Shown here: piece by piece, positions 59,974 through 64,000 of the stretch | Layout of the letters: every line of letters starts with the position of its first letter | How positions within the stretch are numbered: the first letter of the stretch is position 1 | Source: Stigmatella ashevillena | GTDB taxonomy: Bacteria; Myxococcota; Myxococcia; Myxococcales; Myxococcaceae | Reading direction: 5' to 3' | Assembly: GCF_028368975.1 (NCBI RefSeq) | Contig: NZ_JAQNDM010000002.1 | Span: 434,001 to 498,000, forward strand | Length of the DNA: 64,000 bases | Program-made: the position numbers and the translations under genes | The notes under the pieces: generated by a model | Seen by the model: the letters and a program-made list of their open reading frames with translations, nothing else | Told to the model about the DNA's origin: nothing | The model's database searches: none

Positions 59974-61755
59974 ATGTCCAAGAGAATCCTGATTGTCGAA
60001 AGTGACACCACCCTTTCCGCGACCCTGCGTGAGGCCTTGGACTCCCGGGGCTTTGGGGTGGACGAGACGGCCGACGGCAAGGGATGCGTGGAGCAGATCC
60101 GCAGAGATCGCCCGGACCTGGTGGTGCTGGCGGTGGATCTGTCCGGCGGACAGAACGGCTACCTCATCTGCGGCAAGCTGAAGAAGGACGACGATCTCAA
60201 GAACGTTCCCATCGTCATCATCGGAAATCCGGACGGTTTTGCCGCCCACCGCAAGCTCAGGGCCCACGCGGACGAGTATGTCGCCAAGCCCGTGGACTCG
60301 GAGCTGTTGGTGGAGCGCGTAGGCGCGCTGATCGGCTTCCCGGACACGGTGATGGGCGAGGTGGTGGAGAACGAGGGCCTCACGCTCGACGGTCTGGCGG
60401 ACGAGCCGATGTCCGACGATGAGCCGATCGTCACCGGCGAGAGCGCCGAGGAGATCGCCGTCGAGGAAGCCTCCAGCTCATCGGGCGAAGAGCTGGACAT
60501 GCTCGACGCGGCCTTCAACGACATGTCCGACGGGGGCGTTCCTGAGGACGAGGAGCCCGTGGTGGCGCCCGTGGACTCCGAGGGGGAAGAGGATCTCTCT
60601 TCTCTCGACAACCTCGGCATGGACTCCGAGGACGCCCTGGATGCCCTCGGGGATGAGGCGGACGAGAAGACCCAGATCGGGTTTCTCTCGCCCCTTCATG
60701 AGCCTGAGATCGTCACGCCCAAGCCCACCGCGCCTGCCCCTCGCCCCGCCCCGGTGGCCACGGCCCCTGTCCCCGCGCGTGTCTCGAGCCCTGCTGCGCC
60801 CGTGACGTCGGCGGCGGACGCCGCAGAGCTCCGCAACCTGCGCGCCAAGGTCGCGGAACTTCAGAGCGCCCTTGAGGACGCCCAGTCCCAGACCTCCTCG
60901 GCGGAGGGCCGGGTGCAGGAGCTGGAATCCCAGTTGGAGACGCAGACGACAGAGCTGGAGACGGCCCGCGCCTCCGCCGGCAAGAACGACAAGGACACCT
61001 TCGCGCTCCGCGATGCGGTCAACAAGAAGGACAAGGAGATCCTCCGGCTCAAGAGCGAGTTGAACCTCCGAGAGCAGGAGAAGGACCGGGAGATCTCCCG
61101 TATCAAGGGCGAGCTGACCCAGAAGGAGCACGACTTCGTCGAGCTGCAGGACAAGCAACTCGAGCTGGAGCGGCAGACCACCGATTCGGCCGCGGAGCTG
61201 GCGCGCCGGGACGCACAGATCAAGACGCTGACCACCAAGGCCGATCAGCTCGCCGCCGACCGCAAGAAGGTGGACCAGCAGCTGCTCGCCGCCAAGGAGG
61301 AAGCGCGCGGAGCCACCTCGAAGCTCACTGCCTTGCAGGCCGAGGTGGACTCGCACCAGGAGCAGCAGAGCGCCGCGCAGGCGGAGCTGGAGGAGCTGCG
61401 CGGACGGACAGATCAGCTCGAAGCGTCGCTCCAGGCCGCCCAGGGCGAGTCCGAGGAGCTGCGCGGCCAGTTGGAAGCCTCCCGCCAGGAGGCCAGCGAC
61501 GTGCAGGGCCAGCTCGAGCAGGCACAGTCGGAACTCTCCAGCCAGGCCGCCCAGGCCGCCGAGGAGACCGAGGGCCTGCGCAAGCGCATCTCCGAGTTGG
61601 AAGAGGCCGCGGTGCGCAGCGAGGAGCGTGTCACGAAGCTCTACTCGCGCATCAAGAACGACGAGAAGCTGCGCGAGCGTGCCAAGAAGGCGCTGGGAAT
61701 CGCCCAGCAGCTCCTGGACGAGCCCTCCTCCTCGCTGGACGAAGCCGCGGCCTGA
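59974..61755 (+). CDS. frzS: FrzS, pseudo-receiver and coiled-coil social-motility protein
   Basis: 593 residues. The N-terminal receiver-like domain (about 1-125) starts MSKRILIVESDTTLSATLRE and keeps Asp55, His92 and Lys105, but the switch Ser/Thr appears as Gly84 (VIIGNPDG), consistent with the atypical receiver described for M. xanthus FrzS, whose His92 also lies at 92. An acidic Pro/Ala linker (about 126-280) leads to a long coiled coil (about 285-575) of Glu/Leu/Arg heptads. In Myxococcus, FrzS localises dynamically to the poles and supports type IV pilus-dependent social motility. The coiled coil here is a little longer than the 555-residue M. xanthus protein would suggest. Confidence 0.95.
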   Translation: MSKRILIVESDTTLSATLREALDSRGFGVDETADGKGCVEQIRRDRPDLVVLAVDLSGGQNGYLICGKLKKDDDLKNVPIVIIGNPDGFAAHRKLRAHADEYVAKPVDSELLVERVGALIGFPDTVMGEVVENEGLTLDGLADEPMSDDEPIVTGESAEEIAVEEASSSSGEELDMLDAAFNDMSDGGVPEDEEPVVAPVDSEGEEDLSSLDNLGMDSEDALDALGDEADEKTQIGFLSPLHEPEIVTPKPTAPAPRPAPVATAPVPARVSSPAAPVTSAADAAELRNLRAKVAELQSALEDAQSQTSSAEGRVQELESQLETQTTELETARASAGKNDKDTFALRDAVNKKDKEILRLKSELNLREQEKDREISRIKGELTQKEHDFVELQDKQLELERQTTDSAAELARRDAQIKTLTTKADQLAADRKKVDQQLLAAKEEARGATSKLTALQAEVDSHQEQQSAAQAELEELRGRTDQLEASLQAAQGESEELRGQLEASRQEASDVQGQLEQAQSELSSQAAQAAEETEGLRKRISELEEAAVRSEERVTKLYSRIKNDEKLRERAKKALGIAQQLLDEPSSSLDEAAA

Positions 61756-61782: not shown

Positions 61783-62733
61783 TCACAGTTTGCGCATCCG
61801 GATGCGGCTCACCTTGTGGTCCGGCCCCTTGGCCAGGATGAGGCGTGCCCGAGAGCGGGTGGGCGCGATGTTCTGAGCCAGGTTCGGGCCGTTGATCTCC
61901 TCCCACAGGGTCTCCGCCCGGGCGATGGCTTCTTCCCGCGTCAGCTTGGTGAAGGAGCGGAAGAAGGACTTCTCGTCGTGGAAGGCCGTGTCCCATAACC
62001 GCAGGAAGCGGTTGACGTACCAGCGGCGGATGTCCTGCTCGTTGGCATCCACGTAGATCGAAAAGTCGAAGAAGTCCGAGAGGAAGATGCGCGGTATGGA
62101 CTCGGCGTCCGTGGGCCCCGTCTGCAACACGTTGAGCCCCTCCAGGATGAGGATGTCCGGCTGGCGGATCGTCTTCACCTCGCCCGGGACGATGTCGTAG
62201 GTGTGGTGCGAGTAGATGGAGGTGGTGACCTCGGACCGGCCCGACTTCAGATCGGCCAGGAAGCGCACCAGCGCGCGCCGATCGTAGCTCTCGGGGAACC
62301 CCTTGCGCTTCATGAGGCCGCGCTTGGTCAGCACGTTGTTGGGAAACAGGAAGCCGTCGGTGGTGACGAGCTCCACGCGCGGATGATCCGGCCAGCGACC
62401 CAGCAACGCCTGGAGGATGCGCGCCGTGGTGCTCTTGCCCACCGCGACACTGCCGGCAATGCCGATGACGAAGGGGACTTTCTGGGCGAAGCCCCCCAGG
62501 AAGGACTGCTGGGCCGTCCACAGGTTCTGCGTCGCGGCGACGTTGAGGTTCAGCAGACGCGACAGCGGCAGATAGACGTCAACGACTTCATTGAGATCAA
62601 GCTGCTCCCCCAGGCCCCTCAGTTGTTCGACCTCCTCCTCTGAGAGCGGCAGCGGCGTGGCCGCCCGCAGGGCCCGCCACTCCTCTCTGCCAAAATCGAC
62701 ATACAGGGACGGGCTCGAACTCGAGCTGAACAT
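61783..62733 (-). CDS. coaA: Type I pantothenate kinase
   Basis: Catalyses the first step of coenzyme A synthesis, ATP-dependent phosphorylation of pantothenate. 316 residues, the family length. Walker A GSVAVGKS is at 94-101. Other CoaA segments are [38 protein letters not shown] and FVDANE-type [15 protein letters not shown]. It is the last gene of an operon with the helical unknown at 62738 (4-bp gap) and coaX. It converges on frzS. Confidence 0.96.
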
Positions 62734-62737
62734 GGGC

Positions 62738-63874
62738 TCATCCTCCCTCCTTCTTGGGTGCCGTCTTCTTCTCCAGCACCTTCTTGGCGAAGCTTTGCAC
62801 GCCCGAGGGGACGTTGCGGTCCTTCGACAAATCCTTCAGCTCCGAATCCCGCAGCGAGTTGAGGAACTTCATCACCACCGTGAGCGGCACCTTGGGGTTC
62901 TTCACCAGGGCCAGCTTGATCTTCAAGTTCTTCGTCCACTCCCGGTTGCCATAAATGATGCGCAGCACCTCCTCGTTCGCCGCCTTGTTACCCGCGGAGA
63001 GAAGCACCTCACCATCGGTGATTCGGGGGCTGCGAATGACCGCCGTGCACACCAGCTTGTTCGAGTCGCGGATCAACGCCGAGCGAGCTTCCTTGTTCCC
63101 CAGCGTCGCCAGTTTGATCTTCTCCGCGATGCTCATCTTCATGATGCGCTGGGTGAGGTTGAGGCGCTTGCCCTCCTCCATGGGCGCCGCGGTCTCCTCC
63201 GGGCCCCCTTCCTCCTGGAACTCCTGAAGCACCTGCTCCGCCGTGGGCCCCGGATCCGGCGGCGCCGCCACCGCCTGAGGACCGAAGAGGCGCACGCGGG
63301 CCGCTTGCATCTGCGGTACGTCCGTCAACGTCAGTCCGCTGCGGACCGCGAAGTCACACACCGAGTCGATGAGCGCCGGGCCCACCTGCCCGTTGGCGCA
63401 GAGGTTGCGGATGATGTTCTCGTGGCGAAGGATGCGCAGCTGGTTCTGGCCGATGATTTCCGCCAGCTTCGCGCTGCAGTCCCGCGCCACGTCGGCCACC
63501 GCCTCATCGGGGGTCGAGGCGTTGAGGACCAGCATCTCCGCGTAAACGTCCTTGCCGCGCAAAAGCCCCAGGAACCAGCCCAGCACGGGGGCCTGCACGC
63601 CCTCGTCCCGGAGCGCGGACCCCAGGATGCGGTCCGGCAGCCCAGCGGCCGTCTTGGGCGCCGTGTCGCGCACCCCCTGCTCCGTGTCGTACGTGAGCAT
63701 GTACAGCACGCCCAGCATGTCCGAGGGGTTGAGCGGCACCAGCCCCTTGGCCGCCATCATCCGCAAGGGGACCGGAGCGGCCGGATCCACGTGCTTGCGC
63801 ATGTTGGGCGGAAGGAACTCCGCGTTGAAGGGACAGCCCGGCGGGGCAGCGGGAACGGGAGCAGCAGTGGTCAT
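62738..63874 (-). CDS. Helical protein of unknown function between coaX and coaA
   Basis: 378 residues. The ATG at 63874 overlaps the coaX stop as ATGA. The N-terminus is Pro/Ala-rich, with no signal peptide. Two helical regions follow (about 40-195 and 235-355) joined by a Pro/Glu-rich hinge (about 205-235). Recurrent segments such as [40 protein letters not shown] and [20 protein letters not shown] look like HEAT/Leu-rich-type helical repeats. The Lys-rich C-terminus ends [10 protein letters not shown]. No known domain is recognised. Its place inside a CoA-synthesis operon is the only clue to its role. Confidence 0.7.
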
Positions 63875-64000
63875 GTCGCGTAGTTCCTTCCGTAGATGAT
63901 GCGCAGCCCCTCGAGCATGAGGAGCTCGTCCACTTCCTGGATGACCTTCGACTCCCCCGCGACGAGCGCCGCCATCTCTCCGGTGGCGATGATCTTCGCG
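63871..64000 (-). CDS. coaX: Type III pantothenate kinase, C-terminal part (partial at window edge)
   Basis: Only the last 42 codons are present. Their translation, [18 protein letters not shown] then [17 protein letters not shown], matches the conserved C-terminus of CoaX (ATGG-type loop, then LTLEGLxxIYxRN). The stop overlaps the next ATG. CoaX does the same reaction as CoaA by an unrelated fold and is insensitive to CoA feedback. The family call rests on a short stretch. Confidence 0.8.

What the first reader, a model, noticed from the sequence alone, without database searches (positions are those of the whole stretch)
61783..64000. Two unrelated pantothenate kinases, CoaX and CoaA, in one overlapping operon with an unknown helical protein
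Seen: coaX end, unknown protein and coaA are coupled (ATGA, then 4 bp). Known: CoaA is feedback-inhibited by CoA; CoaX is not. Most bacteria keep only one. Inference: the pair permits two regimes of CoA supply, and the unknown protein may link or regulate them.
Basis: partly seen in the sequence, partly recalled or inferred. Interest (0 to 1): 0.5.

Follow-up and report, generated by a model that had tools for sequence, protein, structure and literature searches.

The report
Second pantothenate kinase beside changing CoaX
In a small group of myxobacteria a second, unrelated vitamin-B5 kinase gene sits in the operon of the original one, and the original enzyme has there changed unusually fast at positions that are otherwise nearly fixed, while the helical protein between them is an old companion of the first gene.

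Summary
On the minus strand a complete coaX (257 aa, starting 644 bases beyond the window), a 378-aa helical protein and coaA are packed by an ATGA overlap and a 4-bp gap.

CoaA is found in 61 of 96 family genomes, but beside this row in only four: the window genome and three relatives. The helical protein goes with coaX: coaX lies directly upstream at 59 of 60 family loci and, outside the family, nearby, same strand and first in 45 of 46 genomes with both rows listed, where no genome (0 of 99) has CoaA over cut-off. So it hardly arose to link two kinases.

Unexpected: in just these four, CoaX sped up on its stem (0.217, against 0.032 in the CoaA-less sister clade; the helical protein 0.062 against 0.063) and lost residues kept by all, or all but one, of 79 other myxobacterial CoaX, among them the ATGG-loop glycine. 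Catalytic motifs remain, and recent selection on CoaX is still purifying. The sister clade shows the opposite outcome: no CoaA, conserved CoaX.

Most likely CoaA is now the main kinase here and CoaX is loosening or changing role. Activity is untested.

The parts
63871..64000 (-). 3' end of coaX (type III pantothenate kinase, 257 aa; the gene runs on to 64644 in window numbering, outside the window)
   Evidence: PF03309 E 1.9e-77, only match in the genome; ORF L002:5645-4872; motifs DVGNTN, GADR, DFGTA present; R28Y, V201A, G223E, L224M, T243M at otherwise (nearly) fixed positions
63871..63874 (-). ATGA overlap of the coaX stop and the start of the unknown protein
   Evidence: sequence
62738..63874 (-). 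378-aa helical-repeat (solenoid-like by model) protein of unknown function, companion of coaX across most of the phylum sample
62734..62737 (-). 4-bp gap between the unknown protein's stop and the coaA start
   Evidence: sequence
61783..62733 (-). coaA, type I pantothenate kinase, 316 aa
   Evidence: TIGR00554 462.5 bits; PDB relatives at E about 1e-114; catalytic positions kept
59974..61755 (+). convergent neighbour: receiver + coiled-coil protein, FrzS-like (context, not part of the operon)
   Evidence: Pfam Response_reg; a relative in 57 of 60 family loci; FrzS described in PMC4546325 (passages)

Best explanation
The locus is the old myxobacterial birA-coaX-solenoid gene row, next to which the family's second pantothenate kinase gene, coaA, came to lie in the ancestor of four closely related species (shown by comparison; one co-transcribed message is inferred from the spacing). 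CoaA became, or already was, able to carry pantothenate phosphorylation and, by analogy with B. subtilis and E. coli, pantetheine salvage (inferred). With CoaA made beside it, the constraint on CoaX fell or changed: CoaX went through a burst of protein change on the stem of this clade and lost otherwise nearly fixed residues, including the second glycine of the ATGG loop, but stayed an intact gene under selection (shown; the causal link is inferred). So CoaA is probably the main pantothenate kinase here, and CoaX is either a weakened kinase or on its way to another role (inferred). The solenoid is a long-standing companion of CoaX, not a link that arose between the two kinases.
For: CoaA over cut-off in 61 of 96 family genomes and 0 of the other 99 phylum genomes; coaA beside the solenoid in 4 of 60 family loci and 4 of 58 CoaA genomes with a solenoid row. 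The window CoaA falls inside the family's CoaA clade (97/96 support, 41 rows) at 73-79% identity, against 60% for Nocardia. coaX upstream of the solenoid at 59 of 60 family loci and, outside the family, same strand and first in 45 of 46 genomes with both rows listed. CoaX stem 0.2165 against 0.0322 in the CoaA-less sister clade; solenoid 0.0616 against 0.0626. Relative-rate tests: CoaX faster in the CoaA-adjacent clade at p<0.05 in 47 of 60 combinations, solenoid 1 of 60 (2 slower), birA 8 of 72 (not independent, uncorrected). Five near-invariant positions lost in all four (R28, V201, G223, L224, T243), E106Q in two. coaA dN/dS 0.04-0.07. The free CoaX tree keeps the clade with G039-G042 (100), so coaX was not replaced by a foreign copy.
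Against: The catalytic motifs of CoaX are intact, and coaX dN/dS between the window genome and G037 is 0.076, like birA (0.067), so recent constraint is strong; the high value in G036-G038 (0.43) is partly shared by birA (0.28) and the solenoid (0.24). birA also has a longer stem here (0.153 against 0.040) and is mildly faster (8 of 72), so part of the speed may be regional or clade-wide. One clade, one event: coaA arrival and CoaX change coincide on one stem. Other CoaA-bearing genera show no comparable change, though g7 is intermediate, so CoaA alone does not cause it; and a CoaA-less outgroup row (G046) has a CoaX/solenoid ratio of 0.82, near the clade's 0.86-0.93. One distant CoaX (L132) lost 6 near-invariant residues in a genome without a CoaA match. 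One short branch has a slightly higher CoaX/solenoid ratio (3.62 against 3.51). No expression or activity data.
Confidence: 0.52

Rival explanations
1. Two working kinases under two regimes: CoaX makes a basal, CoA-insensitive supply, CoaA a CoA-inhibited supply plus pantetheine salvage; both are kept because a predator meets both pantothenate and pantetheine.
For: Both reading frames intact, catalytic motifs kept; strong recent constraint on coaX in the G000-G037 pair (0.076); E. coli positions K101, R106, H177 kept in CoaA (their link to CoA inhibition is recalled); B. subtilis CoaA but not CoaX uses pantetheine, and the double mutant could not be made (PMC11487621, passages).
Against: CoaX is the gene most accelerated in just this clade and has lost nearly fixed residues; the sister clade does without CoaA; E. 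coli F247 is Leu here.
Confidence: 0.27
2. Chance placement: coaA has wandered to several sites in the family, one of them the coaX row, and the CoaX change is unrelated (drift or adaptation).
For: coaA has different neighbours in different sampled genera (short flanks), so it has probably moved more than once; other CoaA-bearing genera show no comparable CoaX change; birA next door is mildly faster too.
Against: Few places in a 9-11 Mb genome would put it directly behind the other pantothenate kinase's row, on the same strand with a 4-bp gap, kept in four species.
Confidence: 0.15
3. The solenoid regulates or assembles CoaX (scaffold or inhibitor), and coaA was later drawn under the same control.
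For: Stable coaX-solenoid linkage and order; a solenoid-like model suits protein binding.
Against: The solenoid did not change pace when CoaX did, as a close partner might; a TPR gene or an EF-G-like gene lies between them in other families; in G105 and G182 no solenoid was found in the stretch fetched around coaX (L134, L133); the frzS-like gene is also a steady neighbour, so shared position could explain the linkage.
Confidence: 0.2

Closest known systems
Bacillus subtilis CoaA + CoaX pair (PMC11487621)
   Same: One genome with a type I and a type III pantothenate kinase of different families.
   Different: Here both genes are in one tightly packed row with a solenoid gene between them, and CoaX has lost nearly fixed residues; in B. 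subtilis single mutants grow and the double mutant could not be constructed (passages).
Mycobacterium tuberculosis CoaA + CoaX, CoaX being an inactive kinase that regulates PanB depupylation (PMC12288473, PMC7770189; passages)
   Same: CoaA present; CoaX changed at positions fixed elsewhere. A CoaX chain that I take to be mycobacterial (9b78; organism not shown by the tool) also lacks the second glycine of the ATGG loop (His there, Glu here).
   Different: Here the motifs DVGNT and DFGTA are intact, unlike 9b78 (DVRNT, DFGSS); no Pup ligase/Dop family was found in 9 of 9 genomes searched, so that mechanism is not available; gene context differs.
birA-coaX gene rows of other bacteria (recalled)
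   Same: birA directly upstream of coaX.
   Different: The solenoid downstream of coaX; its distribution outside Myxococcota was not tested here.

Membership tests
Type I pantothenate kinase (CoaA) | TIGR00554 above its curated cut-off over the full length | tested here: met
   462.5 bits against 235, residues 9-315
Type I pantothenate kinase (CoaA) | P-loop and catalytic/substrate residues (E. coli K101, D127, H177, Y240, N282; roles recalled) | tested here: met
   identical in 4 of 4 CoaA-adjacent and 39 of 39 other family rows aligned
Type I pantothenate kinase (CoaA) | CoA feedback inhibition (E. coli R106, H177, F247; recalled) | tested here: inconclusive
   R106 and H177 kept, F247 is Leu in 4 of 4 and 39 of 39 family rows and in 6 of 7 others; inhibition itself needs an assay
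Type III pantothenate kinase (CoaX) | PF03309 over cut-off and motifs DVGNT, GADR, DFGTA | tested here: met
   motifs in 22 of 22 rows examined
Type III pantothenate kinase (CoaX) | second glycine of the ATGG loop (adenosine loop; role recalled; common but not shown here to be essential) | tested here: not met
   G in 79 of 79 other myxobacterial rows and in PDB chains 2h3g, 3djc, 3bex and 2gtd; E in the 4 CoaA-adjacent rows
Type III pantothenate kinase (CoaX) | pantothenate phosphorylation | not testable with these tools
   needs an enzyme assay or complementation
Mycobacterial CoaX-Dop regulator | Pup ligase/Dop (PF03136) in the genome | tested here: not met
   0 of 9 genomes; the control rings in C. 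glutamicum
HEAT/ARM repeat protein (the unknown) | Pfam HEAT models | tested here: inconclusive
   HEAT_2 in 8 of 11 members at E up to 1, best 0.0014; none for the window protein
HEAT/ARM repeat protein (the unknown) | stacked helix pairs of the HEAT/ARM kind | tested here: inconclusive
   all-helical model, pLDDT 82; no Foldseek match at E 0.001 or better; best VIA Z 7.0, which its note calls common for helical repeats

The most novel reading that the evidence does not exclude
In this clade CoaX is no longer mainly a pantothenate kinase: after coaA joined its row it became a non-catalytic or altered CoaX (for example a pantothenate or CoA-state sensor), an origin of a pseudokinase independent of the mycobacterial one and without Pup/Dop, while the sister clade resolved the same redundancy the other way by losing CoaA. 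The two sister clades would then be a natural experiment in how non-homologous enzymes of one function replace each other.
Probability: 0.28. Interest if true: 0.65.

Novelty: new variant of a known kind. Interest (0 to 1): 0.45.

Why it matters
Genomes with two unrelated pantothenate kinases raise the question of why both are kept. Here two sister clades show opposite outcomes: one lacks CoaA and keeps a conserved CoaX, the other keeps CoaA beside coaX while CoaX changes at nearly fixed sites. If CoaX proves inactive or repurposed, that would be an independent case beside mycobacteria, in harmless laboratory organisms. The solenoid gives an uncharacterised candidate partner of CoaX across most of the phylum sample.

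Tried and rejected
Rejected: the unknown protein as a link that arose with the pair; it is linked to coaX in genomes without CoaA. Rejected: CoaX truncated. Rejected: coaX replaced by a foreign copy (the free tree keeps the clade with G039-G042 at 100; the clade itself has 76 there and deeper forks are weak). Rejected: a mycobacterial-type Dop mechanism (0 of 9). Not established: absence of a type II kinase; the Fumble family found nothing in 9 of 9 genomes, but its control was silent too. Fold searches for the solenoid gave only generic helical-repeat matches; PHROGs gave two weak matches (best E 0.081) and PADLOC none. Literature: the listings showed no title on CoaX and CoaA together in myxobacteria or on the solenoid; the library holds open-licence papers only and long lists were cut. 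The mycobacterial CoaX paper itself (PMC11626117) is not held; I used passages of two reviews.

Caveats on counts. Several of the 60 loci are the same genome reached by two routes. In 3 of the 61 CoaA genomes (G019, G024, G026) no full-length solenoid row exists, and in G051 and G080 the solenoid lies at a contig end, so 'not adjacent' rests there on coaA being on another contig. The table holds only genomes with both rows in the cut lists (46 of 99 outside the family), the better-scoring ones; in three distant loci read apart (L131, L133, L134) only one of the two genes was in the stretch. Relative-rate tests share sequences and are uncorrected. In one search identical proteins and rows with stops or too short were dropped (83 coaX, 82 solenoid, 69 birA rows left), and L001 and L003-L008 were left out because other stretches stand for those genomes. 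The tree has 51 of the 57 hits: L001 was too short and L004-L008 repeat genomes already present. In one search coaA was compared only for three CoaA-adjacent pairs.

Full report
What is there. The minus-strand row is hom - birA - coaX - unknown protein - coaA, with a convergent receiver/coiled-coil gene after coaA; hom and birA are named by me from their sequences, not by a family search. coaX ends at 63871, overlapping the unknown protein's start as ATGA; the unknown protein ends at 62738 and coaA starts at 62733, with four bases between. coaX is complete outside the window (257 aa, only PF03309 match in the genome). CoaA scores 462.5 bits on TIGR00554 and its closest solved relatives are pantothenate kinases. 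The genome is 10.95 Mb in two contigs and lies in a family of 96 held genomes. A same-genus contig length (G041, 113,569) equals that of a Hyalangium versicolor record, and G037 has a single contig of 10,260,756 bases, which I recall as the size of Stigmatella aurantiaca DW4/3-1; so the genus is Stigmatella/Hyalangium-like by inference.

How far the arrangement is conserved. I ran tblastn with six genes of the row over 60 family loci that hold the unknown protein, L005-L064; several come from the same genome by two routes. coaX lies upstream in 59 of 60 (L050 is cut by a contig end) and a frzS-like gene is in 57 of 60. coaA is present in 4 of 60: the window genome and G036, G037, G038, with the same match spacing. 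In the same genus G039, G040 and G041 have no CoaA over cut-off anywhere. CoaA is over cut-off in 61 of the 195 genomes of the phylum sample, all within the 96 of the family, none in the other 99. Of these 61, 4 have coaA beside the solenoid gene, 18 have it at least 1.09 Mb off on the same contig, 36 on another contig, and 3 have no full-length solenoid row. At those other sites its neighbours differ by genus in the stretches fetched. CoaX is found in 182 of 195 and some match to the unknown protein in 183 of 195, the latter including partial matches to its C-terminal part.

The unknown protein goes with coaX. Outside the family both rows are listed for 46 of 99 genomes; in 45 they lie within 10 kb, on the same strand, with coaX first (median gap between matched stretches 726 bases); in the last, G097, they are on different contigs. 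Of 28 loci read closely, 25 hold both genes, all on the same strand with coaX first; three distant ones (L131, L133, L134) hold only one of the two, so the linkage is not universal. In some families a TPR gene (L116, L117) or an EF-G-like gene (L118, L128) lies between them. AlphaFold gives an all-helical, solenoid-like model (pLDDT 82, pTM 0.74); Foldseek has no PDB match at 0.001 or better and VIA-align stays at Z 7.0 or below, which its own note calls common for such folds. HEAT_2 touches 8 of 11 members weakly (best 0.0014).

Where coaA came from. In a 51-row tree the window CoaA groups with the family CoaA (97/96, 41 rows), apart from Nocardia and Tsukamurella and from a second pair in G051 and G080. 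Identity is 73-79% to the other family CoaA fetched, 59-60% to those of G051 and G080, and 60% to Nocardia. In a solenoid+birA tree (28 rows; two genes of this very locus stand in for the species) the CoaA-adjacent clade (93) and the CoaA-less clade G039-G042 (100) are sisters (100), inside a crown whose other sampled genera carry CoaA elsewhere. The plainest reading is one gain in the crown ancestor, several moves, and a loss in G039-G042; re-entry into the CoaA-adjacent clade from a relative is not excluded.

The unexpected part: CoaX. Comparing 83 distinct myxobacterial CoaX proteins, the four CoaA-adjacent ones differ at positions where the other 79 agree: R28 (79/79; Tyr or Ser), G223 (79/79; Glu in all four), L224 (79/79; Met), T243 (79/79; Met), E106 (79/79; Gln in two of the four), and V201 (78/79; Ala). 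Leaving out one cluster at a time, five near-invariant positions are lost in all four members; among 34 clusters only the distant single row L132 loses more (6), and the other clusters with four or more members (4, 6 and 36) lose none in all their members. In solved relatives the ATGG loop keeps its second glycine in 2h3g, 3djc, 3bex and 2gtd, but it is His in 9b78, which I take to be mycobacterial. On a fixed topology the CoaX stem of this clade is 0.2165 against 0.0322 for the CoaA-less sister clade; for the solenoid 0.0616 against 0.0626; for birA 0.1528 against 0.0402, with birA root-to-tip lengths 0.97-1.02 against 0.89-0.93 where CoaX has 0.73-0.80 against 0.55-0.59. Relative-rate tests over four CoaA-adjacent rows, three sisters and the outgroups at hand: CoaX faster at p<0.05 in 47 of 60, solenoid in 1 of 60 (slower in 2), birA in 8 of 72 (examples, such as 32v14, 29v10, 33v11, 31v13, 27v14 for the window CoaX against G039). 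The CoaX/solenoid branch ratio of the stem is 3.51 against a median of 0.73, second of 35 branches, behind a short one at 3.62.

Results against a simple decay story. The motifs DVGNTN, GADR and DFGTA are intact in 22 of 22 rows looked at. coaX dN/dS is 0.076 between the window genome and G037, 0.27 for G000-G036 and 0.43 for G036-G038, against 0.09-0.16 in three sister pairs; but birA (0.28) and the solenoid (0.24) are also high in G036-G038; coaA is 0.04-0.07. So CoaX is not a dead gene: much of the change fell on the stem and constraint continues. That fits a weakened kinase, a changed kinase or a new role about equally. Other CoaA-bearing genera show no comparable change, g7 being intermediate; a CoaA-less outgroup row, G046, has a CoaX/solenoid root-to-tip ratio of 0.82 against 0.86-0.93 in the clade. 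So the presence of CoaA is not enough; nearness of coaA to coaX is the one relevant feature I know to be shared by these four only, and it is one event. birA, also in the row, is mildly faster, so part of the effect may not be specific to CoaX.

Mechanism. Known from others: B. subtilis CoaA phosphorylates pantothenate and pantetheine, CoaX only pantothenate, single mutants grow and the double mutant could not be constructed; many bacilli and actinobacteria have both (PMC11487621, passages). M. tuberculosis CoaX is an inactive kinase that regulates depupylation of PanB through Dop (PMC12288473, passages; PMC7770189, passages). Here PanB is present in 9 of 9 genomes searched and Pup ligase/Dop in 0 of 9. 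I infer that CoaA supplies the main pantothenate kinase activity, with pantetheine salvage that would suit a predator, and that CoaX has been freed to weaken or to change role. Whether CoaA is CoA-inhibited here is open: R106 and H177 of the E. coli site are kept, F247 is Leu (the roles of these residues are recalled).

Verdict. The new element is a single-clade burst of change, strongest in CoaX, that coincides with the arrival of coaA in its row, beside a sister clade with the opposite outcome.

Noticed in passing
window 59974-61755 (+): FrzS-like receiver + coiled-coil gene is a steady convergent neighbour of coaX-solenoid (57 of 60 family loci), and relatives lie near the pair in several other families.
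   Followed up: partly
L118:3601-5691 (-) and L128:3171-5255 (+): An EF-G-like protein gene (about 695 aa) lies between coaX and the solenoid gene in two family f11 loci.
   Followed up: no
L116:3168-3719 (-), L117:3517-4062 (-): A small TPR protein gene lies between coaX and the solenoid gene in loci of families f3 and f9.
   Followed up: no
L143:1867-2637 (-) (G000:C2, about 3.097 Mb): 256-aa ORF in the window genome that overlaps a weak match (28% identity) to the solenoid's C-terminal third; weak matches of this kind recur in many family genomes.
   Followed up: partly
L065-L094, L103-L111: coaA has neighbours that differ by genus in this family, as if it had moved several times.
   Followed up: partly
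L083 (G080), L103 (G051): Two fragmented genomes carry a separate CoaA lineage (grouped at 99/95, 59-60% identity to the window CoaA).
   Followed up: no
L132 (G166): A distant CoaX, in a genome not among those with a CoaA match, lost 6 near-invariant residues.
   Followed up: no
L045 (BNCN01000004.1): A record titled Comamonas sp. KCTC 72670 carries birA-coaX-solenoid-frzS much like the Myxococcus loci; probably mislabelled or contaminated.
   Followed up: no
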